NCBI GenBank assembly: GCA_000697665.1
Contig: KL197772.1
Coordinates: 72,718 to 100,941, forward strand
Reading direction: 5' to 3'
DNA length: 28,224 bases
Source: Jaapia argillacea MUCL 33604
Taxonomy: Eukaryota; Basidiomycota; Agaricomycetes; Jaapiales; Jaapiaceae
The notes under the pieces were generated by a model. That model had not been told where the DNA came from, ran no database searches, and saw nothing but the letters and a program-made list of their open reading frames with translations. Below, piece after piece: positions 2,012 to 28,224 of this stretch (positions are counted from its first letter, which is position 1; each line of letters starts with the position of its first letter). Both the position numbers and the translations under genes were made by a program.

Positions 2012-2092
2012 AAATCTCGGTCTGTCTTTCCTACAGTTTATTTTATCTTCCTTGTTTCCCTTTTCTTTTATGCTCATCATTGTGAGGGGGTG

Positions 2093-3832: not shown

Positions 3833-4198
3833 TACAAGTAAGGCAGTTGTAGATTTGGGTTCCCCTGCCTTCAGGCTATCCAATGACACCTATGTTATAT
3901 AAACTTCCAAATTTGATAATTTCTACATTTGGAGTCTATCAGGGGCAACAAGCAAGTTCTAGAATCACAGACTACACCACCATATCTCTTGCAAAATGCA
4001 AAATGATTTTGAAACACAACACTGTTATACTTTGTGCCTTGTAGCAGGTCAACCAATGATGCTATAACAAATACAGTGACAGATCCAGGTAGGCCTAGGT
4101 CTAGGCTATCTATTGAGACCAACATATTCAAAAATTTTTACATCACAATATTCCACTTCCCATCTCCTTGACCATCTTTCACTGCCCTGCACCACTGG

Positions 4199-7990: not shown

Positions 7991-8137
7991 GATAGTATTA
8001 GAAGGGCTTGATAGATAGAAGGAGAGAGAAAGATAGAGAGGGACAAAGTTGGCGATGAACTGACAGACGCTCAGGCAGTGTTTTTTAGGCAAAGATTTAT
8101 GGTTGCGTGTAACTGAAAGGACACATTGTGATGTCAT

Positions 8138-8774
8138 TGTAGACTAAAGTGTAAACCGTAAAATTGTAAAGAATCTAAAAAAAGTGCTAACTATTCATAA
8201 ACATATTCTCCTCCCACCTGTTCCTATCCTTTATCCAACTATGGAAGGAAGCATCAGCATAAAGAACAATAGACCCTCGTTTGCCATTGAAGTAAAGGTT
8301 GAAATGGGTTAGTGTTATGAGCACCTTAGCATTAGCGTAAGGTAGCGAATAAGGCTTGTAAGTCCTTTGGGTACTTCTTGCTAACTAGTACTCAGACTAC
8401 GATCATGAGGCAATAGAGGATGATGAGGATGAGCAAACTGGTTGAAGGATACAACTTAAAGTGCTGTATTGTTCAAGTGGACAAGCTACCGAATACAGAG
8501 TAGCTAGGCATGTTGGCGTTGGTGATTAGGTATTCAAATCAATCCTTATGCTCACCTACCAAATTGTATGGACTTCCTTATGGTCACCAGTATCCGCTCC
8601 ATAGTTTACTTGTCCTCACTCTCTTGTAGCATACGATCTGTTAGTTATTGCATATCCATGTACACTACATAAGGTCTGAGGGACCCACAATGATTCATCG
8701 TTATTCTATCCTACCGCTGCGCTTAACCTTATGACAGGTTATGAGCCCCACCTAGGTGTAACCTGACATACTGA
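8138..8774. other. Intergenic DNA between the DUF6532-like gene and the Copia remnant
   Basis: No gene is supported here. One hairpin is visible at about 8736-8766 (CAGGTTA ... TAACCTG enclosing the palindrome CACCTAGGTG). The segment may include unrecognisable remains of the Copia 5' part. Confidence 0.5.
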
Positions 8775-10850
8775 AACTCTGCTTTATCGAACGAACCTCT
8801 GATACTACGCACGGATTCACACTTGGTCTATGTTGGGAGCATGACCATTACTTCGAATCAAGCTTGGACTACCTTAAGGGATATGTTCGAAGCTCAGGGC
8901 CCATTGGGCATTGTATTGGCACGGAGGAAGTTCTTCCGTGCAGAATGTGAAGAAGATGGGAATATCGAGGAGCATGTGCAGGCGATGCGGGGCTACCAGG
9001 ATGAGATCCAGTGGATCAGTGGCAAGCCGATCGACGACGATGACTTCTCAATCACGCTTCTCACATCGTTGCCAGAAAGCTGGAATAATTTCATTCAGTC
9101 TATTGACACCTCGGCATTAACGTCATCGGCTAGACTCATCGCTCGGATCTTATCAGAAGATGCTCAGAGGAGGTCTAGAGGTGGAGCCTCAGACTTGGTG
9201 CTTTTCATGAAGAAGAAGGGCGGGGCTGGGGGAAAGAAGAAGGATGTCGAGTGCTATAATTGTCATAAGCGGGGGCATATGAAGGCAGATTGCTGGGCGA
9301 AGGGAGGTGGAAAGGAGGGGCAAGGCCCAAGGAGGGGGAAATCCGAGCAAGTCCACCAGACCACTACCTCAGCCAACTCACCTGACGAATATGCATTTTA
9401 CCATACCAAGAACAAAGATGCACTTGATTCGGATGATGCTGTCATGGCTGCCAGAGATCGGAAATCTTGTTGGTTTGCTGATAGTGGCACTACAACACAC
9501 GTTGCAAATTGCCAGGAAGATTTCATTTCCCTGACAACTTCTCAGTCCCGACCATTGAGGGGTGTTGGAGGAGATTGTGCTGTTCTCAGGAGGGGGTCAG
9601 TCAAGTTATCCTTCAAAGTGGGCAATAATATTCGCATTATCACTCTTCAGGACATCGCATTTGCTCCATCTGCACCCGAAAACCTCATTTCCTTGTGCCG
9701 GGCTGATGACAAGGGTTTGAAATATGTGGGAGGAGATGGCCAGATCAAGCTTCTGGGCCAGAATGGTGATGTGATTGGTGTGGGAGCAAAGAAGCGAGGT
9801 CCAGGCCAGCTGTATCTGATGGAATGTTCTGTGATCCGAGAAGCGTTGGACTCAGTTCATGTGGCGAAGGAGGCATGGACTTGGGCTGAGTGGCATCGAG
9901 TGCTCGGGCATATAGGAATGGGGGCAGTACAGAATTTGGTGTGAGCTGGGATGGTGAATGGAATGTTGGTGGATAAAACCTCAGATACGACGATCACCTG
10001 TGATCCGTGCGTGCAAGCCAAACATCACCGCGAACCATTTCCCCAAGTCTCGACTACACCCATTCGGGAAATTGGCGAACTCACAGTTGCTGATGTTTGG
10101 GGTCCAGCCCGAATGGAGACAATTACCGGCTATTGCTATGCCGCAACCTACACAGATGGCAAATCACGTCGCACCATGGTGTACTTTGGACGTCATAAGA
10201 ACATCATTGACGAAACATGGGATGATTACAAGGCGTTTGTGCAGGTGCAGGCAGGACCGGGAATCGTAATGAAGAGATTTCATTGCGACAATGGCGCCGA
10301 ATATGTCAATGAGCAATTCCGAGCCAAATTGCGCCGAGATGGCACCATTCTCGAGACCACAGCCCCGTATTCACCTCAGCAAAATGGGATTGCAGAACGA
10401 CTTAATCAAACTCTGATGTCTATGGTTAGGGCCATGCTTTATGGAGCTGGTTTACCCAAGTTTCTCTGGGGAGAAGCTCTGGCGTATGCGTGCTACATCA
10501 AAAACCAAGTCCCTACCCGCGCATTGAAAGATATCACACCGGAGGAAGCGTTCTTTGGTCCCAATCGAAAGCCAGACTTGTCGATCTTGCACGAATTTGG
10601 TTCCAAGTGTTGGGTCCTTGACCAATCGGGCAAGCACGAGAAGCTTGATCCGAAATCTCACAAATTCATTTTTGTTGGGATGGCTGAGGGCTCAAAGGCG
10701 TACCGATATTATGACACACGAAGAAGGAGGGTGTTGAAGTCGAGGAATGTAATTTTCAGGTCGACTCCGGTTGTGGAGGAGAATCCAGTTGTGGCACCTT
10801 CTCAGATTGAGGGGGAGAGTGGAAGAATGGGCAATCCGCAACCCATTCAG
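8775..10850 (+). mobile_element. Copia (Ty1-like) retrotransposon remnant, truncated at both ends
   Basis: Gag, protease and integrase occur in Copia order, but there are no LTRs, no start of Gag, and no reverse transcriptase or RNase H. Homology begins in mid-Gag near 8775 (a stop lies just upstream) and fades after the integrase C-terminal part near 10830. It runs directly into the palindromic motif cluster that starts at 10860. Confidence 0.85.
8823..10850 (+). pseudogene. Copia gag-protease-integrase polyprotein, 5'-truncated with an internal stop
   Basis: This frame carries a Gag core (GPLGIVLARRKFFRAE, ITLLTSLPESWNNFI), a zinc knuckle CYNCHKRGHMKADC (codons about 143-156), an aspartic protease site ADSGTTTH (near codon 219), and the integrase HHCC part (HRVLGH ... 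CDPC). The integrase core has Asp at 10155 (TDGKS), Asp at 10287 (CDNGAEY) and Glu at 10395 (GIAERLNQ). The last two acidic residues are 36 positions apart, the normal D-35-E spacing. A single TGA at 9942-9944 splits the zinc domain, and the frame continues unchanged on the other side. CGA to TGA is a likely cause. No initiation codon fits, because the Gag N-terminus is missing. Confidence 0.85.
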
Positions 10851-10859
10851 CTATTTTTT

Positions 10860-11116
10860 CCAGTAGTAATGGCCAGCAGACCATGCATATCAACCATTGT
10901 TAATGTGCCAGCAGACTCGGCTGACATGTGTCCGCGGCCCATTGTTAATGGCCCAGCGGACATGCCATTAGTATTGTGTCAGCCTCCTTATACCATTAGG
11001 CCGCTGAACCAGTAGTAATGGCTCAGCCGACCTTGGTAGAATATATGCCAACGATCAGTCCGCTGTACATTGATAATACACTTGCGCACGTTCCATTAGT
11101 AATGGCTCAGCCGACC
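10860..11116 (+). repeat. Cluster of degenerate palindromic motifs, core CCATTA-N-TAATGG
   Basis: Six copies lie in the same orientation, starting at about 10860, 10894, 10939, 10965, 11009 and 11093, with a shortened seventh at 10993. The core is a palindrome around one base and is followed by a conserved tail near CTCAGCCGACC. The copy at 10939 is embedded in a longer hairpin (GTCCGC ... GCGGAC, 10930-10962). Spacing is irregular (16 to 84 bp), so this is not a simple tandem repeat. The function is unknown. Confidence 0.6.
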
Positions 11117-11948
11117 TATATATTTCAGTGCCGGCAGCAGATTATCCACTTTTTGGGTGAGTGCCGGGGACCTGCTCATGCCACGAGACCCAATAGGATT
11201 GTAATAGCAATCCTTTGCATTTTGAGCGATGACCCCTAGTTTGCAGTTGTCAGGCATTCCGTGGTAATGTTTGCGGGGACCAGCAGGAACCCAGCAAATC
11301 AGTATACATCAGCATTTCCGCAAGTTTCTGGGGCTCTGGAAGGCCTGTAACACTGGAGTGCCAGAGCACCAGAGGATTCCAGTGGCTCCAGAACGACAGT
11401 CCTCCAGAGGCTCTGAGTCTTTGCTTGGAATGATTCTGCTAGTATATATGTACTGTATTATTATGACGACGAAAGTGGCTCCTAGAACGAGAGCCAAAAA
11501 TCAGTTAGCAGTGAGGGTCGAACGGACCACATCAAACACAACAACATCACAACCAATCCACTCAGCCACAGTGGCACTGCGCTAGTTGACACTATTAGTT
11601 ATTTATTACCTTTCTATTGCTTGAGCATCCAAAATGGAAGGATGGTGAAATTTTCGCCAAGTCCATCATCGCCCTTGACCTCCTCGTCCCTGCAACCCCA
11701 CGCACGCTTTCCTACAACTCCTTGGGCTCCTGATTTCTGACCTATGAGATAGTATTACCTCCAAGCTTCGACAAAAGGACTCAATCCCCCTCGTGCAATG
11801 TAAACCCCAGATCTGTTCAACAAACCTACGTTTGGCACTCGAAAACCTCCTACCAGTGCGCACCAACACTGAGTCCCCCTTGAACAATTGCAATATGCCT
11901 AAATCTGTGCTTGGACAGCCACTTGAAATCACTGAGTCAAAGCTCTGG
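11117..11948. other. Intergenic DNA between the motif cluster and the tandem array
   Basis: Apart from the tRNA-like relic, the segment 11325-11420 is rich in CTGGAG and CCAGAG words that can pair with each other, similar in style to the small inverted-repeat element at 15185-15341. No protein gene is supported. Confidence 0.4.
11508..11580 (-). other. tRNA-like relic with A-box and B-box
   Basis: On the minus strand TGGCTGAGTGG, a perfect A-box pattern, is followed at tRNA-like spacing by CCGTTCGACCC, a good B-box. The 73-nt segment begins GCAGTG and ends CACTGC, but the A-box sits about five bases too far in for a normal acceptor stem, and the T-arm stem does not pair well. It is therefore a tRNA-derived relic or SINE head rather than a working tRNA. 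Confidence 0.35.
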
Positions 11949-12367
11949 GTATGTCATACGATTCGATTCAGATTGTATTTTTGTGTTTTTACTGATTCAC
12001 TAATTTCGAATTTCAGCTCTTTCCGACACCTCCACTCACCCACCTCCACCTCCCTCTTGTCTCCTGATTGTCAGGACACCATGGAACCACCCAATATTAC
12101 AGTCCGAGATGCCTAACCCACCCAAACCCCTTCCCCTCCTCCATATCAGCTCAACCCACTGTTGGGGCGGGTTGAGTTGTTTCTAACCATCTTCAAATTG
12201 CTACTACAACCCCAGGTGACGCCCTTACATTCCCCCATGCAGGTCGGTACCCTCGCGAAACCCAATCTGGCCCAATCCCTCTTAGCAATTCCTCACCCCG
12301 AGAAACAATGAATCACCAGGCTTGCAAGTGCCCAACAACCCCTAGGACACATGGAGAATACCAGGCG

Positions 12368-12397
12368 AGCTGAGCGAAGCGCTCGCTTCGCTTAGCT
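12368..12397. other. Strong hairpin
   Basis: AGCTGAGCGAAGCG pairs with CGCTTCGCTTAGCT across a two-base loop, with one mismatch. It lies inside array unit 1, and I did not see it in the other units. It could form a cruciform or an RNA stem; no role is evident. Confidence 0.7.
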
Positions 12398-14023
12398 TCC
12401 ATCATTTCATTCGGCATGCACGCTCTCCCTCCCCGACCCACCACCCTCGCAATCGCTTGTGTAGCAGATGTGCTGGGTCATTTCCTATCTACGACCACTC
12501 ACCCCTCATACAAACTGGCATCCTCATTGAGGGTGCCGGTTCCGCTCGCTTTTCGATTTTGCCGCCCACCTCCCGACCTCAAACCTCCTCGCCCACCTCC
12601 AAAACAAAGGGTGTTCACGCTTAGGACTTAGTGGAGGATTAGAAGGGTGGAGGTGTCACAGAATGAGCATACGGGTTCAAGGTAAGTAAGAAGCATTGAT
12701 TCTTATTATTATTTTTACTAATTTACTTATTCTTCGCTTTTCAGCTATTTCTACCAACCCCACAACCCCATCCCCACATTCCCTGACCACTTCCACACAT
12801 CAAGAGCCCACTCCGTCACCTACCTGCCCATTCGCAACACCCAAACCGACCCACTACCCTTCCCAGCCAACCACTTCCTCCCTCCCCCATGATCCACTCA
12901 GGCTGCCTCCACAGCGGCCTGAGCTGTTTCTAATCGATTTTATATCACTTTAACGATGCCATTGCAGCGCCAGCAATGTCTCGCCCACCTGCAACTTCGA
13001 CCTCTGGTCAACCCTCCTCCAACCCTATTTCCTCTTCGGAAACACGAAACCACGGACCTCTCAGGCGGTTACATGCCACTGCAGACGATTGTATGACCAG
13101 CAGGTAAATCTGATGAAGAATTCGCTATGCTGGATTTGCTGGATTTCCCCAAGATCCACCCCCCACCTGAAACCATCAGAATTGCCACAAGAGCAATTCT
13201 GATGGATGGGTTTTTTTTTCTACCAACAATCACTCCTCATATGCACCGATGCCCTCACTGAGGGTGCCGGTTTCATTCGCATTATCGAATTCGCCGCTAA
13301 CCGTCCAACTCCACCTCCTCACCTCAAACCCTCTCGCCCTCAGCCAAAACGAAGGGCGTTCATTCTTAGGATGCAGCGAAGGGTACTGGGGGTCACAGGA
13401 CGAGTATATGGGCCCGAGGTAAGTAAAAATATCAACTCTGAACGTTTATTTTCACTGACTCACTTATTCTTCACTTTTCAGCGCTTTCTACCAACTGTGG
13501 CCCCGTCCCTACCCTCCCTGATCACTTCCACACACCAAGAGCCCACTCTGTCACCCACCTGCCCATTCGCAAACTCCGAACCAGGCCGTTGTCTTCCCCA
13601 GCCACCACTCCCTCCCCCTCCCCCATAATCCACTCAGGCTGCCTCCACGGCGGCCTGAACTGTTTCTAATCAATTTTATATTGCTTTAACGACCCTCATG
13701 ACACCGTCACACTGTCAGCCACGCCTCGCCCACCTGCAACTTCGACCTCCGGTCAACCCTCCTCCAAGCCTATTTCCCCTTCGAAAACAAGAAACCATGG
13801 GCCTCTCGGGTGGTCAAATACCACCACAGACACTTGGATGACCACCGTGTAAACCCAGTGAACCACTCGTTTCGCTAGGTTTGCTTCGATTCCCAAAGAC
13901 CCACTTCTCGCTTCCCCTCGCCTAAGTCCGTCAGAATCATCACGAGCGATTCTGATTGGTTTTTCCTTCTTCTCTGCCACCATCCAGACCTCGTATGATC
14001 CAACGCCCTCACAGGGGCTTATG

Positions 14024-14380
14024 TAGTGATGTTGAGGGCCCGGCTTTGTGACAAGCCCTGGGAAAGCCCTGAAAAGCCCGATTGCTGTCACGCTCCGGCA
14101 ACTTCACAGATACTGTTAACAAAAATAGATCCAAAACTAGAAAGGAGAGCCCAATCAGGATTGAAAAATCAAAATTTCAAATTCTGACCCAACAAATTTC
14201 CAAACGTGGAAATAAAATGTTTTGAGTATCCAATTGGGTGCAGATTTCGGCCAGCTTCCCGGATCTCATAAAGATTTGTCGTAAAAATGAGGATTGATGA
14301 CACAGTGGCCAGAAGTCACTGTTGGGCTTTCCAGGGCTTTGTGACGGGCCTGTGACCGAGCCGGGCCCTCAACATCACTA
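14024..14380. mobile_element. 357-bp hAT-type MITE with 8-bp target duplication
   Basis: The ends TAGTGATGTTGAGGGCCCGG are perfectly inverted over 22 bp and fit the hAT terminal pattern YAGNG. The 8-bp duplication GGCTTATG flanks both sides (14016-14023 and 14381-14388), the length hAT transposases make. Subterminal parts share GC-rich words (AAGCCCTGG) in opposite orientation. It has no coding capacity. It interrupts array unit 3, and removing it restores the array period, so it arrived after the amplification. Confidence 0.9.
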
Positions 14381-15184
14381 GGCTTATGTTACGCTCGGAT
14401 TTTTTTACTTCACATCCGAACAACCCATTGACCCCACTCTGGTCTCAAGCCCCTCAAACGGCGTACATTCAATGCACGAAGGCACTTGCAGGTTGGGAGA
14501 GTGCAAGGACAAGGTCACCGCCTAATGGTAAGTAAAGAAATTCCTTTCTCCATAATTTTTTGACTTATTTGCTAGTTTTCGGTCTTTAGTTCTTTCGATC
14601 AACTCTAATACCCGAACCCTGCCTCTGTTAACAACTTCGGTACAATACAGTGCTGCGCCGCCACCCACAAACTCTTTCCCAACCCACGAACCGGCCCAAT
14701 ACAGTATCCCACCCGTCCCACACAACCGACTCAGGCTGTCCCATCGGCTGCCTGGGATGTTCCTAATCAACACCCTTGGTATCCCAAGACCGGAACGATG
14801 CAGATGCAGCCGTCGCTGTCTTCTGTACAGTCTTATCTTCGAGACTTCGACACCAGCCTCACTACCCCCAAGTTACCCTCTCAATCGATCGCAACTGCAA
14901 CAAGAGCAATTGCTTTTGGTTATCTCTTGATCTCTAGGACCATACCCACCCCATCCAAGACCGACGCCTTCGCTGGGCATCTGTGTCATTGCGGATAGTA
15001 CTGGCCCACCTGATATTCGGACGGGCACCGCCAATGCATGCTTTTGCATCCTGCTGGCCTGTCTCGAATCTCATATCATGACAGTACTGTAGAATAATAT
15101 CTGTAGCTACGTGAGTTACACCCGTGTGTACATACAGCAACATTTAAATAAGCATTGATTGTTATTTTATTGTCTGTCTGGTGT

Positions 15185-15341
15185 TCTGGAGAGTCTGGCG
15201 CTCTGGAAACCAAATATCTTCCATGAAAATGATGATTTAAAAGTTGCTCTGGACGGGATTTGAACCTGGCTTGTCGACTGGCATCTGGCGTCCTGGAAAT
15301 CTCTGGAAACAACTGAAATCGTCTCTGCCAGACTCTCCAGA
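15185..15341. repeat. Small 157-bp inverted-repeat element with an internal B-box-like word
   Basis: TCTGGAGAGTCTGGC at the left end is the exact reverse complement of GCCAGACTCTCCAGA at the right end. On the minus strand the interior contains GGTTCAAATCC, a perfect B-box word, around 15255-15265. No matching A-box was found. The ends are flanked by no obvious duplication, so its mobility is uncertain. Confidence 0.5.
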
Positions 15342-15856
15342 CATTTGTGGGAAAGCTGATGTATTGACAGAGAATTATGTGCGGACGACAGCATGTTACA
15401 CTGGCATGATCGCGAGACTTGTAGCTGGTGATAATGCTATCAAAGGGCATCTCAATCCAATCCGTTGGGTCTTAATTCTGCAGGCAATGGCAGCGCACAA
15501 TGTGTGGTGAACAATGTCGCGGATGTTAATAGTCCTGAATGTTGGGATGCGACCACACAATCATCGACAATGATTGGACGCCGGCGCTGATAGAATCAAA
15601 CAGTGATAACCTGCTGAAATATTGGTTGACGTTGCGAGATGTTCGCAAGACCGCCGGACAGAGCAGCACTGAACCTGACAACCAGATAAAAATCTTTGAC
15701 ATTTCTATGAGGGAGTAGATACAATGACAGCAATGATTATACCAATCCAGAGGAAAGAATGCAGAGCATAGTGGGGGAGCAAGGTAAATACAAGAATGAA
15801 TTGGACACCGCAAAATCAAACGCAACCTCAAGACTGCGGCAATGACACATAAAACC
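15342..15856. other. Intergenic DNA downstream of the coiled-coil gene
   Basis: I see no gene, repeat or RNA structure here. It should hold the 3' untranslated region of the minus-strand gene ending at 15857. Confidence 0.5.
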
Positions 15857-18177
15857 CTACACGCTTCTTGAGCTCTTGCGCATGTCAGCGTCATGAGCCT
15901 TCTCAAGCTTTGCAATGTCATCGCTGGTAATTGCGACGGAGCGCAGATCCGACAGACCCTTCCTAGTTGAGTCAACCTCGGTCAAAAGCTCTTCGCAAAG
16001 CTTTTCCAGCTTCCTGGACTTGGCCTTGAGGGTCACGACATCATCACAGAGGGGCTTCAACTCCTCCTCGACGATCTTCTCCATGGCCTTGTCAACGGCT
16101 CGTTGGATTATTGCATTGAGCTCATCTTGGGTTCGCTGGAATAAGATAAGATTCGTGAGCAGAGGATGACAACAAAGGGATGCGACACTCACCAGCAGAA
16201 TTCCGACCGCATTCGCAATGCGATCTTGAAACTTGGGGACAAGGGGGTAAGACATTGGAACGTCCAACACAGCAGATGACACTACAAAAGCAAAAAGGTT
16301 AACCTTCAAGGGTTCAAAGAGAGTTCAAAAGCCTCACCTTGAATCTTTACCTTTGGATCCTTGGGTTCAAAGTCTAAATCGAGTATATGAGCTCATTCAA
16401 GCTAAAGTAGCAGCGAACGTACCTATGGTCGTGATCTTGCTACCTCCGGCAACGGGCTTCGGCTTTGGCGGGAGATGAACAATCAGCTGCGACCTCTTCC
16501 CTCCTTCCTTCAGAGGAGCCTTGGGCTTCTCAGGCTCAGCAATGTCCTCCTCGCTGTCGACAATAACCTCCTTCGACTTAGACTTTTTGGAGTGACTGGG
16601 TCTCTTGGGCGGCGGAGCAACAGCCGGAGGATTGGCATCTCGCACAGTAGCCTTGGGGGCACCTCGTTGGGTCTTGGGAGGAACGGGTGCGGGAGGTTGC
16701 GATTCGTTTGTGGGATCCACGGGAGGATCGGCATCTGACTTGTTACCTTTTGCAATACCTCGTTTGAGTTTAGGGCGAACTGGTGCTGGAGGTTCCAGCT
16801 CGGTCTGAGGTTCCGTGGCAGCTGGGACAGCCCTCTTGTTGGGGATGCGAGGGGCATCGGGTGGGAGACCACTAAACGCGGTAGTTCCTGGCCCATAGAC
16901 AGGACCTGGTAGCCCCATGGGCTCCGCGTCCTTTGTGGTCGCCTTGGCCTTCGACTTCCCCTTGTTGGGGGGGCAAATGACTCGGATGGGTTGAGCCTTG
17001 GGATCGAAGTGGGGGTTGGGTATGAGGGCGGAGGTAGTCCCCTTGTGGCCGCAGTTGTAGTGCTTCGCGGTGCACCAGAGGCAGTTGCCGCCGTCCTTAT
17101 AGTTCGTGCATATGGCGTTTGCACGAGCACAAGTCGCGCAAGGTGTAGCAAACATCTAAGGGACATGAAAAACAGTCTTGCACAGATAATATCAGACTCA
17201 CCATCCGAAACGACTTTGTGAGGTCAACCAGGTAACCCGAGATGGAAGAATCCAAGATCTCCAGAGGCTTGTTCACCGCATCCTTGGACTTCACTCTCTT
17301 GGGAGCGACCTTATGAGGGGAATCCGGTGTGGGATGCTTCTGCCTTGATGAACCAGCCACACGCTCTCTGCCCTCCTCAACTTCCATCGGGACGTCCCTA
17401 CCATCGTTGCCCAGATCCATCTCCTCATCTTCCAACTCCTGTCCACTTGTATCTTGGCCCCCACCCTCCTCCACAATTGCAGCCTCCTCCTTCTCACTTT
17501 CCCTCCCCGCGGTCATATCAACATCTTTCATTGGAATGTCCTGAGCGTCGGCCTTACTCTTGCCCTTTGCGATGGCAGGGATGCGAGCTGGAGAGGGTTG
17601 AGGTGGAGGAGGGAGGAGGTGAGGGTTCAAGTGTGCAGAGGGAGCAGAGACAGGGGTCACATCACTGGAGATCATCTGAGGATCGACAGATGGAGCTTGA
17701 ATCTGTCAGCGACATCATTGAGAAATCAAGATCAAACATACTGGAAGCATCCTCTGCTAGCCAAAACTTCGCAGCCATGGGGCGATCATGCACCCATTCC
17801 GGCAATTCATCCTTCCAGAAGCCGGCATCAACGTTGAAATGATCTGGAGATAGCTCAATCAGGTCTGCAGCTGAGAGCCTCCTCCCCTGCGTGACCGCTC
17901 CCCATTTGAGGCATTGCAGGTCTGCGACGAGCCATGTAAGCCTGAGGGGACGGTAAACATCCGGATAGGTATTGACAACATCCCGAGCAGCCGACAGAGC
18001 ACTTTCAAACTGGTCAAATTCATTTTCAATGAAAGGAATCCAAGCCTTGAGGTCGCACAGACTAGCATTGGCAATGCAAGAGTGCCAGAGGTTAACGCGG
18101 TGAGAGAACATGTAGAGGACGTAAGAGAATGGCTTGAGGGCAGCCTTAGCAGCGTTGATGCGTTCAACAGGGGCCAT
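15857..18177 (-). CDS. Intact 688-aa protein with cysteine cluster and C-terminal coiled coil, function unknown
   Basis: Six exons join in one frame: 18177-17742, 17695-17202, 17155-16423, 16373-16338 (a 36-base microexon), 16281-16193 and 16135-15857. All introns are GT-AG and 46-57 bp. The N-terminal 150 residues look globular and helical (MAPVERINAAKAALKPFSYV). An acidic disordered stretch follows. Near residue 311 begins a cysteine cluster, CATCARANAICTNYK then CLWCTAKHYNCGHKG, with C-x2-C-x5-C and C-x2-C-x6-C spacing that suggests zinc binding and possibly nucleic acid contact. A long proline- and lysine-rich linker with SKKSKSKEV leads to a coiled coil in the last exon (KAKSRKLEKLCEELL). 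I used the first ATG, at 18177. The lack of frame breaks contrasts with its decayed neighbours. I do not recognise the family; a regulatory or structural partner of a mobile element is possible. Confidence 0.75.
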
Positions 18178-18388
18178 GGTATGCAATGAGTAGAACAGTG
18201 GTTGCGTTGAGTTAGTTGACTAGAGTAGCAAAGGTCGCAGCGCAAGATATTCCCAGGAACAGCCGGCAATGTGGACGCGAGGCAAAGGCACAACCGCCGT
18301 GAGAGTTTGGACTTCATCATTGGCCGCGCGGTCTGCATACCTCTGCCTTTGGTGTCTTTGCTATTCAATTCTGCTTTTCAACACCAGC

Positions 18389-18721
18389 ATGGACGCTCGC
18401 TTTTTGCCTGAGGACTCTGAGATTCCACAGAATGAGCGCGGTATGAATCATGTAATTCCTAAGTTGACAGCATTGCTGAGAATCATTGCATCACCAGAAG
18501 CGACTCCAGCGTCTGTTTTTGACCCCATAAAAGGGTTGAATTGGTCTGCCGGTACAACACTATCAGCGCTGTTTGAGAGGGGATATTTGGGTCAAGTCAA
18601 TGAAGGAATTGCCTGCCCATCGCTGAGTATCATAGATAGAGGTGACTTGAATTTTGGTGCGTTTATTCTCTTTGGGAGGATGTTTCATTGCTTCAACTAT
18701 CCGCACGTCAGATCAAAGTGA
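18389..18721 (+). CDS. Hypothetical 110-aa ORF
   Basis: The frame starts at an ATG in good context (CCAGCATGG) and runs to a stop at 18719-18721. It lies between two minus-strand genes: divergent from the coiled-coil gene (start at 18177, about 210 bp away, which could be a shared promoter) and convergent with the decayed gene ending at 18801. The protein starts MDARFLPEDSEIPQNERG and has no motif I know. It could be the first exon of a longer gene, a small real protein, or chance. Confidence 0.3.
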   Translation: MDARFLPEDSEIPQNERGMNHVIPKLTALLRIIASPEATPASVFDPIKGLNWSAGTTLSALFERGYLGQVNEGIACPSLSIIDRGDLNFGAFILFGRMFHCFNYPHVRSK

Positions 18722-18800
18722 GAGTTGAGTATTATCTACCTTCTCCGTCAGAGCCTGCGACGTCAGATCCATCGCCCTTATCACCTTCCTCATTGCCTAT

Positions 18801-20477
18801 TCATCTATCAGACATATCCAGGCCAGAAATAAGAGTATCCTCACTGGTGTGGTAGTCCTCTTCCTCCATTGAGGCGATCTCATCCTCGGTTTCATCCTCC
18901 GGCACAGTTTTAGCCTTTGACTTACCTTCAGATCTAGTCGTGATACTTTGACCAGAGCCAGTTGAATTGGTATTAGTCTGCTTGGAAGTTGATTTTGTCT
19001 TTCTGCTGTGTTTCTCCTTCCCTTTACCCTTCTGGGCCTTTGGGTTGAATGGCGGTGCCTTCCGGGCCTCTGTGGATACAATCGGCAATGTGGGAATGTT
19101 GGATAAAACAAATCGTCACCTTCCAGTATCTTGGATGTCCATGTCCACCTGAAAACACCATTCTGCGCTGTGTTGTTGAGCTTCATTAGCATGTCATAAG
19201 AATAGTCCCTGTGCATCCGGGATGGGTCCCACAACACTCCACTGCTAGGAATCCACTTTGGGTCCATCCAAAGCTCAGGCTCTTGAGACACCTGTGCCCA
19301 AGGTACCCCAGACTTTCCGCCGGATTGCTGCACTGATTGCATAGATTCAGTGCGGCTTTACCCTCCACAGTGTGCTAAACTTATTCCAAGTGAGGTTGAG
19401 GAAATCTCAGAGGACCACTTCGCACACAGCCTTCTTGTTTGGGAGGGGATCCAGCAATATGGGATAGTTATCGTTGTCTATTTCTAACTGCGGGTTCTCT
19501 TTCACCTTTTTATTACGACTGGGCATCGACCTGGGATCGCCAGCGTCAGAATTCTTGTCTCGATCTGAGCCTCCTAGTCAGATAAGTCAGAGTCAGCGAA
19601 TGGGATGGCATACTGATTTCTGTCTTTAACCATCGAGCCCAATGGACCAAAGCCTCGCTCTCCTCAAAAGCTTCATTCTCCTGAAGAAAGCCGCAACCCA
19701 GCGTGTCGACGCTACATTGCGTTCAGCGCCATGGGGACCAAATTAAGAGTAAGCAACAAACCAGAAGTAAATAATCTTCCCATCCGACCCTTTATATCCA
19801 AAGAGAGTCACCGCATACACTCCCAGCTTCTCCTGCATGAGCCGCAGAAACTTGGTGACCAATGCCATCATGCGCTTCTCTGCCACCTTAAAAGAGTGTT
19901 AATACCATCCTCGATTAAAGCCGTGTGTCTCACCTCTGTTGCATAGTGGGAGGAGGACCCAGCCTGTTCCACTCCGCGGCAAACTTTTCGTGCTCTCTCT
20001 TCACGTCGGGGTCGAGACCTCTCATGAGTTCGCTGACCACAATCTGGTAATACTTGAATGTTCCCTCGGGATTATCAGACTCATGCTTCTTCTCCTGCTG
20101 CCTCTTCTTGATGTCTTCAAACATGAGGTATTCAAGAACAGACTTGGGACTCCACTTCCGCATGAAAAAGCCAATGAGATCGCTGACCGAGTTTGGCACC
20201 TCATTCAACATCCAGTTGGATACCGCCTGCCATATTCGTCAAGCATGGGGTCAAGCATGGGCTGGGAAGTGATTTCAAATCTTACCTTTGTGATGCTCAT
20301 CTTGACCTTTGTCGTCACCAGACCGACAGCTTCCAAACACGTGACAATGGCCTGGGTAGCTTCATCTAGAAGGGGCTTATGCTGATGCCGTTTGGCGGCT
20401 TTGTACTGCTCGTGGAAATCTATGAGAACATCGATGTCAGTGAGGTCATAACTGGGCGCTTCTTGTCGGGGAGGCAT
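18801..20477 (-). pseudogene. Decayed multi-exon gene of a family common in agaricomycete repeats
   Basis: It starts at ATG 20477 (MPPRQEAPSYDLTDID). Introns fit at 20285-20227, 19933-19887, 19761-19712, 19613-19574 and 19119-19070. Exon 2 has a helical, lysine-rich part (FEDIKKRQQEKKHE, then FKYYQIVVSELMRG) and the word EKFAAEWNRLGPPP, which I remember from many uncharacterised agaricomycete proteins. The later part has VPWAQVSQEPELWMDP, and the C-terminal tail is rich in K, S, T and E and ends at 18801. Lesions: the exon 2 to exon 3 junction is one base out of frame; TGA at 19409-19407 replaces a residue before DFLNLTWNKF and fits CGA to TGA; the frame around 19375-19335 cannot be joined cleanly. 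Function unknown. Confidence 0.6.
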
Positions 20478-20553
20478 GAGTGTGGGAAGGCAGAGAGGAA
20501 CAAAGGAAAATTTTGGAAATCGTGATGTGTCACCATCACCTGAGTCACGTGAA

Positions 20554-20596
20554 GTAATTACAGTCGCGTCACGTCGCACGATGTAATTACAGTCGC
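20554..20596 (-). promoter_or_regulatory. Direct repeat GTAATTACAGTCGC, two copies 29 bp apart
   Basis: GTAATTACAGTCGC occurs at 20554-20567 and again at 20583-20596, upstream of the ATG at 20477 on the minus strand. TCACGT and ACGTCGCACG words lie between and around the copies. The position suits a promoter element, or a transposase-binding repeat near an element end. Neither is shown. Confidence 0.35.
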
Positions 20597-20604
20597 ATCG
20601 CCCA

Positions 20605-21329
20605 AAGCATGACATTTATCCTGGATATTGAGCTCACAACTTGCAATCGGTCAGATAAGCTGCTTGCCATGAGCTTGAATAGTCTGGGCAATTGATGGGC
20701 TCAAAGACAGGAGTCCCCATTGACAAGACCTTCACATAGCTGGTGTACAGCCTGAGGACCATACAATAGGGCCATGGTAACAGAGGACACTGTTTCTGAG
20801 CAGGAGATTGAAATGTCTGGATATGTCTAACTGTCTGGCCATTCCAAGGATATGGCTCAGATCATACCTAGTGTCTAGCAAACCAGACATTGAAACATTT
20901 CAATCTGGCTATACACCGGTCAGCAGAGTTGTCAAGCAAAATTTGACTCTGGCCAGAGAAGCAGGATGGCCTGAAGTGTGCTCGAAAGCATCCAAAACCT
21001 AGCCGTCAAAGTCAAGAAAAGAGTGCAAGACATCAGAAAGAGGATAGGAAAGGTTGTGGTGTATTCGATGGTCAACAATGCATTGAAAGGTTTCTGTTTA
21101 CTCTGACCTTCATAGTTGTGTCGAGGACAACCATTTTTCAACTCAGCTCATGGAATGGTTGATTTGAGGCCCATTAGCGGAGCGAGGGAGGGAGCAACAC
21201 CTAAACCCAACGAAAGATGCATGTGGCTGGAGCTGGCGCGGCAGACAGCCTCCTTTATCCAGCGCGAGACACTAGCCGATCACTCATTTGCGCCTTTCAC
21301 CACAATCGTTTATCACCACTCTCACTGTC
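20605..21329. other. Divergent intergenic region upstream of the TET/JBP gene
   Basis: No gene is supported. An imperfect inverted repeat joins AGATTGAAATGTCTGG (about 20804-20819) with CCAGACATT...CATTTCAATCT (about 20882-20906). The region must hold the plus-strand promoter of the gene at 21330 and, near 20480-20600, the promoter of the minus-strand gene. Confidence 0.5.
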
Positions 21330-22632
21330 ATGCCTCTCTTTTTAGATCAGACTGATGTTAATCAGGCCCTAAAGCTGGAACATGAAATGTCCAGGCACCT
21401 GAACTTTCAATTCCAGGTCAAATTGGGCCATAACGTGGTTCCTGGGACTCCTTTACTGCGAATCCCTCAAATCCTGCAACAGGAATGTGAGCGAATGTCC
21501 TCCATTCTAGCAGAGGCATTTTTACGCCATGGTAAGCCTCCTCTGGTCTCCGCACTTCTCTCACCAACCCTTCGCAGTCGATCTTGACTGGACAGCGACC
21601 GACTATGCGCACCATTTGGGTGTCAAGGCTGACGGCTTTCAATCTAAATCAGAACAAGTGGTGGACTCTCAATACAGCCCTATCTATGGTCCCAATTTCC
21701 CAATTATCACAAAACCCTGCACGATCGTCGATGCCAAAGGGTACATTCTGTTCTGGTTTCTTCTGGGCCTGTTGCACCCAGACATACAGGTCAGTTCAAG
21801 CATGTTCTGACCTTTGGCATGCCATTGACTATTCGCAGAATGATATGTTTCATGCCGCAGCCCATTTGAATCCTCAGCTAGTCAGAACAGGGTCTTGTGA
21901 GAAGACTGCGGGTTGGAGAGGTTCACCTGCGCTCTTCAAACCAAAGGACAGATGTCCTCACATTGAACCTGGGCTACTCAACTTCGCTCCAGCTTGGTTT
22001 CAGCTTGGGCGGCAGGTATGTGGTGTCATTGTTGCCAGCCATCTATTGTCTGAGCAGTTTCAGGGCATCAACGACGACCTATGCACCTCCAAGACCATGC
22101 AGAGCAAGGCCATGCTTACGGGTACCCAACCTTGGCTGAAGTCCATGCTCGAGGGGAACGCCGTGATGAATGCTGTGTTGAGCGTGATTCATCCTGACCT
22201 TTATCTTGTAGGGAGCGTCGCCCACGGTCTACTGAGGGAATCAGATTCCCACTCCGCGGTGATGGAGCATTGGAATTCTGTGTACTCAGGCGTCACAGTC
22301 ATTGCCAACCGAGAGACACCCGTTCATAGGGATCCCAATTGCCGACTGGGCTGGTTTGACCTGCTTGCTACCGTCGGACCATATCAATATGCGGAACTGG
22401 AGTTGAGGGGTCTCGGACTAAGGTTCCCTTACTTGCCGGGAACCCATTGCGCACTCAGTGGATATGTGATCAAGCACGCAGCGATGGAGAGAGGGTCTGC
22501 TATGCGTATTTCATGAGGGATAGGGTGTTGTGTAGATTAGGAGTTCCCACAGCCCCTCCGGTTAGAGTGGACCAATTTGGTGCAAGTCCCACCAGAAGCC
22601 AGGCAGCGAGTGCCGGATACCCACAACTGTGA
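21330..22632 (+). pseudogene. TET/JBP-family 2-oxoglutarate/Fe(II) dioxygenase (5-methylcytosine oxidase type), one frame break
   Basis: Four exons: 21330-21531, 21578-21789, 21839-22015 and 22064-22632, with introns of 46-49 bp. The catalytic double-stranded beta-helix lies in exon 4. The iron ligands are HxD in PVHRDPNCRLGWFDLL (His at 22325, Asp at 22331) and the distal His in ALSGYVIKHAA (22475). The predicted 2-oxoglutarate-binding Arg is in GERVCYAYFMRD (22492), but that stretch is one frame over, so the literal reading stops at 22516. A base is missing or two are extra between 22478 and 22491. Enzymes of this family oxidise 5-methylcytosine in DNA, and basidiomycetes have large families of them linked to KDZ transposons. 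The neighbouring KDZ gene starts 53 bp downstream on the same strand. The length is about 385 aa if the frame continued. The ATG at 21330 is the first in frame with the conserved part. Confidence 0.85.
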
Positions 22633-22685
22633 TTACACTGCTCTCCTTGGGAATCAATAGCGTTCATCTGCTTCACTCCGTTGTT

Positions 22686-25600
22686 ATGCGATCCCGCGCC
22701 CCTGCCAAACAAGGTCGCAATGTCGATGATATTGATCTGACACCAAAGAAGAAGACTGTTTCAGCCTATCTTGACAAGGATGGAAATTGTTGCAAGCATA
22801 TTGTTGATGCCAGGATTCAGCCGAAATCGAGTCAACCCCTGCCAGAGCTCAGGACACCTTCCAAAACACCTCAGGGGACCCCGCGACGTCTGCATCTAGC
22901 ACCTTTTGACATGACTTATGGGGGAAGCAATGAAGACTTCCCTCTGCTGAGAAAAACCCGGAAGGTATGTGGTCATCGGAAGTTACCTGTAATGCTCCCT
23001 GATTTTCTGACTTAGACTCCAAACGATTTCATGCGCAAGTGGCTTGACGTCAGGGAAGTGTTCCTCAACACACTGCTCAAGGGAAAATCGCCCCCAGATC
23101 CGCGAACATGCGCAATGTGTGCCGGTGATGGAATCTGGCGCTGCGGCGACTGTCTTGGCAGACCTTTGTTATGTGCATCATGTTGCCGAACCGCTCACTG
23201 GCATCTTCCATTTCATCGGGTGGAGCAATGGTTGGGCGGCTTTTTCCAACCAGGTTGGCTATCGAGCCTTGGGATCGAAATTCATTTGGGACATGCTGGA
23301 GCCATATGTCCAATGAATCAATGTCATTTTCCAGACAATGACCTCTTTCAGCAGCCCCACGCATCTTTGGCGAGATATAAAGATCCTTACCAGTCCCAGC
23401 TGGTCCCTCCAATGCATTACAGCTCTCAACCGATTCCAGGTAACCTAAATCAAGATGCTGGGCCCTCTCGATTTCCAGGATCTATGGAGGGTCGTTCGTC
23501 AGCACCCGTCGACGAAAGTAATCCTTTTGTTGTTGAGGATGACGACGATGAGGAAGGAATAAACTGGAGGGATGAGTTGGATGAAGCCCTTCTTTCCGAG
23601 AAGTCAAACTTCAACAGGCCGCGGCCCAAACTTTGTGGTCAAACCATGATTCTCGTCGACACCTCGGGAGTGCACGAGCTGACCATGAACTTCTGCGGCT
23701 GTGCTGACAAGCCCCCCAACACGGTTCAACTTCTAGACTTAGGCCTTTATCCTGGTAGCGTCAAACGACCTGCGACCGCATTCACATTCAAGGTGCTGGA
23801 TGACTTCACCCGGCATAACCTCGAATGCAAGACGAATACTTGAGAGTACTATGAAACACTCTGCAGAGCAACTCAACCAGTGTTTCCTCAAACTGTGCCA
23901 GTACGCCGTACATTGCTTGTCATGAGCGCCGCTTAACTGTTGTGATTCAAGGATCGTTACAGAGAAATGATGAGATGCTCTTGGCAATGGAGACACCTGA
24001 AGATGCTCAAGTGGCAGGGATTTGGCTATGGCCCCTTTTGTGAGCCAGGTCCAGGAGAGCTGGCTCTCTTTTGTCTGGCGTGTCCTCAGGTAGGAGTAAA
24101 TTTGCCCGACAATTGGGAGGAAGAGGCGGAAAGGTGCAAGGTGTTCAGTCTCCACTTAACTCCACCTAGTCATCTCCCTTAGATTACCCTGGCTCTTCTC
24201 TCGGCAATTGAATATGGATGGGAACTTCAAAGCCAAGCAGACCCATTGCAAGTATCCAGACGACGACCTTCCCTTGACACGAGGTAGCCTGTTTTTGTGC
24301 GAGGAATACGCGGTACAATCAGTACATTGCTGGAGCAGTTGAACGACCTCAGGTAGGCTTTTTTGGAGCAGCTCTCATTCTGGCATTGATGCCCCCCTTC
24401 TCAGAAACCAACTTGTCACAACCACAAGGCTCAAAGTCAAGCAAATACTCAGGCGAAGCACCTTGCGATCACCGGCATTGTGGCCGTCGCATGTGCCTGA
24501 CATGGTTGTTTCTGTCCTGGGTCCTGTGCAAACTTGCAAAAGGGGGAAAGGTGAGGGGCATATATTCTGACCTCGCCATCCCTCTGATACACGATTCAAA
24601 ATAGGCAAATCAACATGGACTACATATTGGCTCAAGCTCTCAACCTGACCAAAATTCCCGGTGTGACTCCAACTATGGTCCTCTATGACATTATTTGTCA
24701 ATATGGCGTGCATGTCACGAAGAGGTTCCTTGAAAATGCTCAATACCTTGGCCTCTCATCGGCCCTAAACTTGATTATGGGAATTGGACTCTTCCATGTT
24801 CACGGTCACCAAGACTCATGTGGATCCAGGTACTCTCCGAACTACATGATTGGTGTGGGTCAAGTGGACGGAGAGGTTATCGAAACCCTGTGGGCTAGGC
24901 TGAATGAAATCACTGTCAGTTGCCGGCCGATGGGCCATGGGCATCGCACAGAGATGCTTGATTTCCACATTTTGAATTCCAACTGGCAAAAGACAATCGG
25001 CATGGGTAAGTTGCACCTATTCGTCTTGTGGCACTCAATTGAATCTCCGCAGTTTCCTCCCTCTGTCGCAAGTTGAAGAGAGCCTACAAACACGTCAGGC
25101 TGAGTGCCGAGGCATTTGCTGACCTCAATAGTGTCGCGATGGAAACACAGGTCCATAACTGGAGAAAGATGGAGAAGGCCGCCGCCGAAAACCATCGGGA
25201 TGATGTATCAGCCATGGATGTTTATGCGCCTATCATGAAAAAAGGTGCCACACCCACTATGCCTGCCTTGCTCCAATCCTGATACATTCATAGCTCCAAC
25301 ACAGTCTGAAATTCAGCACGACCTGTCCCGGAAGGAAGGCGGAGTCGGTCCAATCAAAGGGTCCGCGAGCTGGTTGGCATCTGGTATTGCAATTCAGGAG
25401 GCCCAGTGCGTTATATCCAAGTTCGCGGTGCCGACGCTGACCATTCTTCAGAGTCGAACTTGCTGCCGCAGTCAGGAAGATGGGTCGCCAGCCTACTGTT
25501 GAGCAACTGAATCAAATTGAGGAAAGGAGGCGGAGGCTGGATGGTCGAATCGACACTTTTGAAAGGTCGGCAGCTTGCTACCTTGTTCAGGATGCCTCGT

Positions 25601-26590
25601 TGCCCGACATGGAGCCTGCCAACGATCCTGGCATTGCTATTGTGCATGCCGACGGTGCCACTGGAGAGGATGAATATGAGATTGTGTTCGATGAGGATGA
25701 GGATGCTCTCTGGGAGGATGACTTTGACTATGATGCAGTTCAGGATCAAGCGAACCCCGACAATGGGCCAATTGATGCTGAAAAACGACACATATCCCTG
25801 CCGACCACTTTAGGACTTCAGCAATGCGCTCACCAAGGCTTGAAGGAAATTTTGGAGGAGGAAGTGAGCCTTCGCGTTGGACAGGCAAATGATCTCCTGC
25901 AGCAAATTCACATTGTGCTCGGCCATAAATCCTTTCTGTATCGCATGGAGATTCGACATAACAAATCTCAAAGTAAGAAGACGCGGTCCTGGTCCCGGGT
26001 AGGTCATGTCAAGGCCACAGTGCAGAAGAACTCCTGGCTTTACAAACAATGTAGGAAGGCAATGGGACGAGGAGGGGCCAGTGAGGACCTACTCGCCAAA
26101 TACAAAGACCTCAAACCGGAAGATCTGAAGATACAGACAGGGGTTGTTGATGATCCCGCTGCTCGCGGCACAAGACAAAACACTTTAGCTTGGTTTTGGA
26201 CTGTGAACCTGGCCGCCAATGCAGATGAGAAGGAGAAGAACGACTATCTCGATGACTGTGAGTATGTTTTTTGTTGTTCTACATCATTGCTGAAGGTCTC
26301 CAGTTTACTGGGTCCATTGGTTGTGTGCGAGGGCTATGAGGGCGAGATGGGCTGAGGAATTCACTCTACTGATTCACGAGATGGATTGGGTTGTGAGGTT
26401 CTTCCGCCAGCAGGAAACAGTCTGGCAGACCCAAGCAGACACCGCCTTGGCTGCCGACCTCTCAGGTCATTCTTGCTATGCCACGCGACAGTCTCACATG
26501 TGGAAAATGTTTGCGGATAGAGCCGATGCTCAGTTTGCGGAGACTCAGAGTGCATATCCACCCCCTCTGGAGCTCCATTATTACTTGTAG
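22686..26590 (+). pseudogene. KDZ (Kyakuja-Dileera-Zisupton) transposase with CxC2 cysteine cluster, decayed
   Basis: Ten exons: 22686-22964, 23016-23900, 23952-24133, 24183-24352, 24405-24550, 24605-25005, 25053-25244, 25294-25405, 25452-26257 and 26304-26590. The introns are 46-54 bp, and the total of 3460 bases is one more than a whole number of codons. The CxC2 cluster is at about residues 121-180 (CAMCAGDGIWRCGDC, CASCCRTAHWHLPFHRVEQW). The RNase H-type core shows MDGNFKAK, LYDIICQYGVH, GIGLFHVHGHQ and VDGEVIETLW, whose acidic residues (near 24217, 24687 and 24873) are the likely catalytic set. The C-terminal part has GQANDLLQQIH and WVHWLCARAMRARW. Lesions: TGA at 23841-23843, TGA at 24498-24500 inside ACA(stop)HGCF where Arg is expected, and a one-base frame break near 24292-24320, perhaps in the T5 run at 24292-24296. 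It would cut and move its own element, but this copy should be inactive. Confidence 0.93.
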
Positions 26591-26665
26591 GGTAGCATTG
26601 CAATCTGTTTGACTCCGCGTATTTGTCGCTGTTGGGTAAGCCACATTGGACTTGAACTGCGTGTC

Positions 26666-27868
26666 ATGCAGCCTCATCCCATCCCAATTCCTCCAACTCC
26701 GATGGCTTCTTCCTCATCCATTGCACAGGCGCCCCAGGATATCAGATGTTGCGAATGCTGCAGAATGCTTTGGATGAACGTCCGGCGTATCGTCAATGGC
26801 CGCAATGATGACTATCCAGAGGGTGCTGCCCCTTTGGACACAGAGGAAATTGCTGACTGGGAGGTGATCAATAGGCTTCAGGCAGAGAATCAACTCATCC
26901 TTGATACCATTGTCGGTCACCTGTCATTGGCCATCCAGGCATACGTCATGCAGCACGGCCAAGGAGAGACCGTATCCCAGGCCGACTTAATCTACTGGTC
27001 CCTAGGCATTCAGACTGAGTTGGTGAGTTCATTTGATTGTCATTTGTCAGGATAATAACACTTCCGCAGTTTATTTACCAGCTGAACTGGGGATATGCTT
27101 CTGAGTCTGGTATGGTCGATGCCTTACCGCACCCCGCAGTTCAGGATATACATAGGTTTTTCTGCCGCTGCCAGCCTCCGCAGAAGGACTGGTCTCCTGC
27201 TGTCACAGCAATCGCCCGCATTTCAGAAGACCTCGTCTCACAGGCTGCTCATTCCCCTCTGCACCTTAATCACTGGTGGGAAGACGACAACCTTCTCGAT
27301 TCGGTCAGCGGTGTAGCCGCTTGTCTGAATGTACAGGTATGTCTCTTCTTCCCGTTTGTTCTGGCATTCAATTCATTCTTGCTAGCTTCGCACAATCAGG
27401 GAGATTACAGCTGCTATTGACGAGCATAGCCAAGTGATCGCGGCGTTGCCGACCCTGAGCAATCTTGGTAGACTGCCCTTTAATGGTGCAATCTTTGGAT
27501 CTACAGTCTGTCGTCCTTCTTACTTCTCTCTCCATCTATTCATTTTCTTCGTTTTTTAGGTTGATGAACTTGATGGTGAGCTGCAAGCGGCTCACACAAT
27601 CGTCTACCGATACCATCTGCGACAAGGCAATCTGTCGCCCCTCCCCTCTCATCTCTTTGAAGCAATGGAGCCCTACACGCCGGAACTTGCCTATCCCAAG
27701 TGCAGCGATGGCCATACCCTCCAGCTCATGAGAAGGAATTATCTGGACCAGTACAATGCGGTGCTGGAGGCGAAGCGAGTCTTCCGGGAAAAATTGTTTG
27801 TGCTGTCATTGGCGTTGACTGTTTATGATAAGGTCATGTACAAGACTTATCCTGATGCCGAGGATTGA
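26666..27868 (+). CDS. Intact KDZ-adjacent gene of unknown function, about 350 aa
   Basis: Exons 26666-27022, 27070-27336, 27386-27505 and 27560-27868 join with three phase-0 introns of 47-54 bp; the third has an unusual donor, GTCTGT. The reading has no stops. An alternative ATG at 26702 gives 338 aa. The protein has a proline-rich start, then a cysteine group (RCCECCRMLWMNVRRI), a mostly helical middle (LQAENQLILDTIVGHLSLA), a W-rich part (HWWEDDNLLDSVSGV), and a helical C-terminus (YLDQYNAVLEAKRVFREKLF). It starts 75 bp after the KDZ stop on the same strand, so it is probably part of the same mobile unit. I do not recognise the family. Its intactness beside a broken transposase is notable. 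Confidence 0.7.
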
Positions 27869-27983
27869 GAGGATGTATGTATTGTACGCATATGATCTTG
27901 CAATGGAGCAGCATGAGTTGCTGGTGGTTGAATTCAACACATCAATACAATTACAACAATCGCGGGACTGACTACCCTCATCC

Positions 27984-28224
27984 CTATGCCTCAGCAGTCA
28001 GTGCCTCTGCAAACTGACGTTTCAGCTCCATGATGCCTAGGAATCTCTCAGCCAGAAGATCCCAGTTGAACTGCAAATAGATGTGAAGAGCCTTTGCGCT
28101 GAGATTGAGAACTCTGGAGCACAGTTTCTGCTCCTCCTGAATGCATATGTCAATGCCGACCCAGATGTATCTGCGCGAAAGTATCACTCACCATGATATC
28201 GTTGTATTCTCCAATCCAAGTGTC
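27984..28224 (-). CDS. 3' end of a minus-strand gene that continues past the window
   Basis: Reading in from the right edge, DTWIGEYNDIM is spliced over a 55-bp intron (28191-28137, GTGAGT...TTCAG) to EEQKLCSRVLNLSAKALH and on to a stop at 27984-27986. The last exon is helical and ends KRQFAEALTAEA. It converges on the KDZ-adjacent gene with 115 bp between the stops. Too little is visible to name it. Confidence 0.55.

What the first reader, a model, noticed from the sequence alone, without database searches (positions are those of the whole stretch)
21330..27868. TET/JBP oxidase, KDZ transposase and a third gene packed head to tail as one cassette
Three genes on one strand are separated by only 53 and 75 bp, very compact for a fungus. 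Seen directly: the HxD...H ligands of a TET/JBP enzyme, the CxC2 and RNase H-like motifs of a KDZ transposase, and a third multi-exon gene. Established: TET/JBP genes of basidiomycetes are expanded and associated with KDZ transposons. Inference: the unit is a mobile element that carries its own 5-methylcytosine oxidase, perhaps to undo host methylation silencing, and the third protein takes part. The minus-strand genes at 15857-20477 may belong to the same unit.
Basis: partly seen in the sequence, partly recalled or inferred. Interest (0 to 1): 0.9.

Follow-up and report, generated by a model that had tools for sequence, protein, structure and literature searches.

The report
Decayed jumping gene carrying methylation eraser
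The three genes are part of a much larger, now broken, mushroom jumping gene of an already described kind that carries its own enzyme for oxidising DNA methylation marks, and its copies bear the mutations that methylation leaves behind.

Summary
The three genes are real, but the mobile unit is not the 6.5-kb cassette. Sister copies in the same genome (Jaapia argillacea, Agaricomycetes) show one large DNA transposon, from window 10839 to past the contig end (28224). The C1 copy is 18,128 bp with CA..TG ends, 83% terminal inverted repeats and a perfect 7-bp target duplication. The minus-strand genes lie inside it. Ends, duplication, KDZ transposase and TET fit TET+ Kyakuja elements (Kojima 2025; Iyer 2014, recalled): a new member of a known kind. 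19 of 37 KDZ loci carry TET just upstream, all among the 21 closest; 11 of 15 copies of a minus-strand gene (M1) lie head-to-head with TET; the third gene occurs at 5 loci, each behind TET+KDZ, with homologs found only in Jaapia. The window copy is defunct: frameshifted TET, stop in KDZ, 2.4-kb deletion, nested insertion. Transitions hit 11.3% of CpG sites against 0.4% of other C/G sites in the window copy, the trace expected from 5mC deamination: these copies were probably methylated although they carry TET genes. That TET relieves silencing is published as likely and was not testable here.

The parts
10839..28224 (+). Transposon copy (17,386 bp in the window; its 3' end lies beyond the contig end)
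   Evidence: Homology to the C1 and C80 copies begins at 10839 with CAACCC and runs to the contig end
10846..10993 (+). 5' terminal inverted repeat (partner of the C1 3' end)
   Evidence: 81% match to C1 local 36311-36162 on the other strand; 120/144 between the two C1 ends
10900..11115 (+). Four inward-facing 17-bp subterminal repeats
   Evidence: eight in the C1 element, all within about 315 bp of an end, shuffle mean 0.15
11307..15361 (.). Nested 4,055-bp insertion, ends CATCAG..CTGATG, TA duplicated, PlavakaB-like ends; not part of the element
   Evidence: Absent from C1 and C80; inverted ends; end motif as given for PlavakaB in Kojima 2025
15857..18177 (-). Gene M2 (annotated relative P0008, 688 aa)
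   Evidence: Open exons and 99% match; in this genome only at the three copies of this element
18389..18717 (+). Start of tentative gene P5, cut by the deletion
   Evidence: joining of the start to the C1 ORF is inferred
18717..18718 (.). Junction of a deletion of 2.4 kb relative to C1 (C80 has more here)
18770..20477 (-). Gene M1, head-to-head with TET, 3' part lost in the window copy (annotated relative P0004, 361 aa)
   Evidence: left limit approximate
20478..21329 (.). 852-bp region between the divergent M1 and TET genes
21330..22516 (+). TET/JBP oxidase gene, four exons, frameshifted near its 3' end
   Evidence: PF12851; 10 bp missing at 22476/22477 against both sister copies
22686..26590 (+). 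KDZ transposase gene with CxC2 cluster; in-frame stop at 23841-23843
   Evidence: PF18803 and PF18758; stop
26666..27868 (+). Third gene, G3, 350 aa in four exons, open in the window copy

Best explanation
The interval is the middle of a degenerate copy of a large TET-bearing Kyakuja (KDZ group) DNA transposon in Jaapia argillacea. Shown: terminal inverted repeats, CA..TG ends, a 7-bp target duplication at the complete C1 copy, a KDZ transposase gene, a TET/JBP gene, a co-conserved divergent gene M1, and accessory genes G3, M2 and (tentative) P5. Inferred mechanism: the transposase acts on the inward subterminal repeats at both ends; the host methylates CpGs in the element; the element's TET oxidises 5mC on it and so keeps ends and promoters usable while the gene is intact. 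This copy can no longer make a complete TET or transposase and has drifted under methylation-driven mutation.
For: Ends, TIR and TSD; non-autonomous relative with the same ends at C8, 6 of 7 TSD bases equal; domains; 19 of 37 KDZ loci with TET, 11 of 15 M1 head-to-head with TET, 5 of 5 G3 behind TET+KDZ (chance 0.06, 0.01, 0.009); constraint on the genes, dN/dS 0.15-0.46 against C80; CpG transitions 131/1164 against 23/5266 other C/G in the window copy; C5-methyltransferase domain matches in the genome; CcTET as the only solved relative found; family features in Kojima 2025.
Against: The C80 flanks do not match each other, and neither does a C34 pair of ends that may not belong together. The element has TIRs, which Kojima reports as absent in two Laccaria Kyakuja families. 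No transposase tree with references was made. The CpG decay could be read as TET failing to protect these copies, and a TET-less control of equal quality is missing.
Confidence: 0.85

Rival explanations
1. The three-gene block 21330-27868 is itself the mobile unit.
For: Compact head-to-tail layout.
Against: Homology between copies runs from 10839 past 28224, and the mapped ends lie outside the block.
Confidence: 0.02
2. G3 or M1 are host genes or neighbours that lie near TET and KDZ by chance.
For: No Pfam match over a curated cut-off, and homologs only in Jaapia in the searches made; the protein search is limited to relatives sharing 5-residue words.
Against: 5 of 5 G3 loci behind TET+KDZ and 11 of 15 M1 loci head-to-head with TET, 0.009 and 0.01 expected; both lie between the mapped ends.
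Confidence: 0.03
3. The TET of the element does not serve to escape silencing but makes a lasting modified base or controls transposase binding at the ends.
For: The copies carry a strong CpG-decay footprint although they carry TET genes; Kojima 2025 discusses 5hmC as a regulator and other modifications as open; TET genes of Laccaria and Coprinopsis are enriched in 5hmC/5fC.
Against: None direct; the footprint may date from after the TETs broke.
Confidence: 0.3

Closest known systems
TET+ Kyakuja DNA transposons of Agaricomycetes (Kojima 2025, PMC12730594; Iyer et al. 2014, recalled)
   Same: KDZ transposase with CxC2, AG-like TET gene with HxD, 7-bp TSD, CA..TG ends
   Different: Terminal inverted repeats here (Kojima: none in two Laccaria families); accessory genes M1, M2, P5 and G3, which I did not find in the main text read; host order Jaapiales, not among the five orders listed; Kojima's supplement not seen
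CcTET of Coprinopsis cinerea (PDB 8jkk, 7vpn, 7w5p)
   Same: HRD, Asp at the D337 position and distal His align
   Different: Cys at the Gly331 position; gene frameshifted in the window
Arabidopsis VANDAL elements with their own anti-silencing protein (named in Kojima 2025)
   Same: Idea of an element-borne counter to silencing
   Different: No sequence relation tested; an oxidase here

Membership tests
TET+ Kyakuja (KDZ) | KDZ transposase preceded by CxC2 | tested here: met
   PF18758 and PF18803
TET+ Kyakuja (KDZ) | TET/JBP gene of HxD type inside the element | tested here: met
   PF12851, alignment to CcTET, inside the mapped ends; frameshifted in this copy
TET+ Kyakuja (KDZ) | 7-bp target duplication | tested here: met
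   C1 exact, C8 6 of 7; C80 and a doubtful C34 pair no match; the window copy lacks its 3' end
TET+ Kyakuja (KDZ) | 5'-CA..TG-3' ends | tested here: met
   CAACCC..CAGTGTG in C1, C8 and C80
TET+ Kyakuja (KDZ) | No TIRs (Kojima's description of two Laccaria families, not a stated criterion) | tested here: not met
   120/144 inverted repeat; TIR motifs of KDZ and Plavaka elements were reported in M. oreades
TET+ Kyakuja (KDZ) | Transposase groups with Kyakuja in a tree | not tested
   No reference sequences at hand
Zisupton | 8-bp target duplication | tested here: not met
   7 bp at C1; the flanks differ at the eighth base
Transposon with active own anti-silencing | Element-encoded oxidase lowers 5mC on the element and raises its movement | not testable with these tools
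   Needs methylation maps and a functional test

The most novel reading that the evidence does not exclude
M1 and TET, placed head-to-head across an ~850-bp region and conserved as a pair while M1 falls to about 33% identity, form a two-part anti-silencing module: M1 is a DNA-binding protein that brings the oxidase to the CpG-bearing subterminal repeats, so that the element erases methylation on itself rather than genome-wide. G3 would be a recent addition to this module or to the transposase.
Probability: 0.15. Interest if true: 0.7.

Novelty: new member of a known kind. Interest (0 to 1): 0.4.

Why it matters
It gives a mapped TET-bearing transposon family with complete ends, a conserved gene next to the oxidase and a clear methylation footprint. 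This makes a standing question testable in one small genome: do transposon-borne TETs protect their own copies? Compare CpG decay and methylation of copies with intact and broken TET, and of TET+ and TET-less KDZ elements.

Tried and rejected
HMG idea for M1: the abstract of Iyer 2014 (recalled, not held) mentions a divergent HMG domain in such elements, and the M1 core looked similar to me by eye. Pfam showed no HMG match for any of the 7 core sequences, the PDB profile search gave nothing convincing (best E 0.044), and the AlphaFold model was poor (pLDDT 49.5). Left open, not claimed.

G3 fold: model pLDDT 33.5, no PDB match up to E 10. No fold search was run on either model because confidence was too low.

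C34: a 3' end sits inside a TET gene, which suggested a self-insertion; the candidate 5' end at C34:121441 has a different flank, so no target duplication was obtained. C12/C56: no matching flanks; the 5' limit of their shared stretch does not look like a terminus.

Row KDZ_C used a wrong frame (8 stops in both rows) and is dropped. A TET-less control for CpG decay was sought in Copia copies, but the loci could not be cut out; only small comparisons inside fetched DNA remain.
Full report
THE OBSERVATION. The window is the end of contig C64 of a 43.7-Mb, 95-contig genome. The best matches of its genes G3, M1 and M2 in a protein database (99-100% identity) are annotated proteins of Jaapia argillacea MUCL 33604, so the host is taken to be that fungus (order Jaapiales). 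The three genes are present: Tet_JBP, CxC2 and KDZ domains, a third gene of four exons and 350 aa without a stop, and spacings of 53 and 75 bp. The 53 bp rests on a TET end that no open frame reaches: 10 bp are missing at 22476/22477 relative to the two sister copies, and the frame ends at 22516. The KDZ gene has a TGA at 23841-23843, shared with the C1 copy and not with C80.

THE REAL UNIT. One KDZ exon has 39 matches in the genome; two are 93-94% identical, on C1 and C80. Homology with both does not stop at the edges of the three-gene block: it starts at 10839 and runs to the contig end. In C1 the element has both ends: C1:3336463-3354590, 18,128 bp including 600 N, CAACCC..CAGTGTG, flanked by GTGTGAC on both sides. 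The ends are inverted repeats, 120 of 144 positions identical. They hold eight inward-facing copies of a 17-bp subterminal repeat (up to three mismatches) against a shuffle mean of 0.15; none was found in the interior. A 7,140-bp element on C8 (4,232 N) has the same ends, with flanks AAAACGG/AAAACAG. Against this, the C80 flanks do not match each other, and a pair of ends on C34, which may not belong together, does not match either. So the target duplication rests on one exact and one near case of four looked at. The 3' end of the window copy lies beyond the contig.

GENE CONTENT. Left to right in the window: M2 (minus), P5 (plus, tentative, cut), M1 (minus, cut), TET, KDZ, G3 (plus). C1 holds 2.4 kb at 18717 that the window lacks, and C80 holds more; this removes the end of M1 and the body of P5. 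A 4,055-bp insert at 11307-15361 is absent from C1 and C80.

CO-OCCURRENCE. Hits were merged into 37 KDZ, 23 TET, 15 M1 and 5 G3 loci (from; the search tool calls its counts lower bounds). 19 of 37 KDZ loci have a TET on the same strand 1.9-3.1 kb upstream (between match midpoints). All 19 are among the 21 best-scoring KDZ loci (recounted); none of the 16 weaker ones has one within 6.5 kb. 4 of 23 TET loci have no KDZ in that range. M1 lies 1.4-2.4 kb upstream of TET on the opposite strand at 11 of 15 loci; of the other four, two are 14 and 19.5 kb away, one is on the same strand in a copy whose TET-KDZ block appears inverted (C78), and one has no TET near. G3 is downstream of KDZ at 5 of 5 loci, so in 5 of 19 TET+KDZ pairs. 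M2 has 3 loci; the P5 ORF of C1 has 2. Random placement predicts about 0.06 TET-KDZ pairs, 0.01 M1-TET pairs and 0.009 G3 cases. I read M1-TET-KDZ as the core and G3, M2 and P5 as later additions of one family.

CODING EVIDENCE. Against C80, dN/dS is 0.20 for TET, 0.31 and 0.15 for two KDZ exons, 0.37 for G3, 0.45 for the M1 core, and 0.29 and 0.46 for two M2 exons. Against the closer C1 copy the values are 0.27-0.68: higher for TET, KDZ, G3 and one M2 exon, lower for the M1 core and the other M2 exon (CpG mutation disturbs both terms; the KDZ_C row had a wrong frame and is dropped). All three copies have TET damage: a frameshift in the window, deletions and stops in C1, stops in C80. G3 is open in the window; C1 and C80 show stops and indels in it.

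METHYLATION FOOTPRINT. Over 12,761 three-way aligned sites, transitions at CpG sites are 131/1164 (11.3%) in the window copy, 159/1164 (13.7%) in C1 and 232/1164 (19.9%) in C80; at other C/G they are 23/5266 (0.44%), 29/5266 (0.55%) and 241/5266 (4.6%). C80 is the more distant copy, so its figures include changes that three sequences cannot orient. Pairs at other TET+ loci show the same excess, for example C12-C56 with 323/1091 CpG-type sites against 278/4670 others (not oriented). CpG observed/expected in the element is 0.63. The genome has C5-methyltransferase domain matches on C2, C4 and C5. The likely cause is deamination of 5mC in silenced copies. Controls are weak: repeats outside the elements also show an excess, but smaller and at higher divergence (C80 1656-2516: 34/102 against 61/383; a repeat upstream of Copia: 11/26 against 20/121). 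So the decay is not shown to be special to TET+ elements.

TET. The only solved relatives found are CcTET entries. The HRD motif, the Asp at the CcTET D337 position and the distal His are kept; the Gly331 position is Cys, where Kojima reports Gly or Ser (residue roles as given in Kojima 2025; positions read off the alignment).

WHAT IS KNOWN. Kojima 2025 (PMC12730594; parts 1-5 of 7 read, passages; supplement not seen) describes TET+ Kyakuja from five orders of Agaricomycetes with 7-bp TSDs and CA..TG ends, without TIRs in two Laccaria families, and proposes escape from methylation silencing; its main text does not name Jaapia. Iyer 2014 is not held and is recalled only. M. oreades work reports TIR motifs of KDZ and Plavaka elements (PMC8290104, passages). 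In P. ostreatus, intact KDZ elements were all preceded by CxC2 (PMC7641404, passages). TET genes in Laccaria and Coprinopsis are enriched in 5hmC/5fC (PMC8889193, passages). A search for Kyakuja with HMG gave no paper; Jaapia argillacea with transposable element gave six listings, none on this topic by title or abstract start. I therefore file it as a new member of a known kind, from an order not on Kojima's list, with accessory genes that I did not find in the text read.

HOW IT LIKELY WORKS. Shown: ends, target duplication, genes, co-occurrence, constraint, CpG decay. Inferred: the transposase acts on the inward subterminal repeats; host CpG methylation silences copies; TET counteracts it while intact; M1, which shares an intergenic region with TET, helps in expression or targeting. 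The CpG decay cuts both ways: it suggests a methylation pressure worth escaping, and that the copies examined did not escape it, at least after their TETs broke. G3 is a constrained protein without known relatives outside Jaapia in the search made; my guess is an aid to the transposase or to TET.

Noticed in passing
window 11307-15361: A 4,055-bp insertion with ends CATCAG..CTGATG and a TA duplication, absent from C1 and C80; the end motif fits PlavakaB as described by Kojima. No transposase was identified in it.
   Followed up: partly
window 8775-11012 and 1025-2008: Copia gag/pol ORFs (aside, Pfam) flank the element; the element start at 10839 lies inside the second Copia ORF, so it seems to have inserted into a Copia.
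   Followed up: partly
L017/L018 (C34), around base 7583 of the joined stretch: A Kyakuja-type 3' end (GCTGAACAGTGTG) is followed directly by TET coding sequence, as if one element had jumped into the TET gene of another.
   Followed up: partly
L035 (C8:368400-375800), 156-7295: A 7.1-kb element with the same ends and a mostly unsequenced interior sits inside an ORF that looks kinase-like to me (motif recalled, not searched).
   Followed up: partly
L023/L024 (C78:27405-47404) against L025/L026 (C76): The TET-KDZ block appears inverted relative to its neighbours in one of two related elements.
   Followed up: no
window 1-8774: Low CpG observed/expected (0.30), foldback-like repeats and a DUF6532 remnant at 6397-6672.
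   Followed up: no
P0001, P0004, P0008 (scaffold of 122,245 bases) against C64 (100,941 bases): The protein records give a longer contig than the one held here, so the missing 3' end of the element may exist in another version of the assembly.
   Followed up: no
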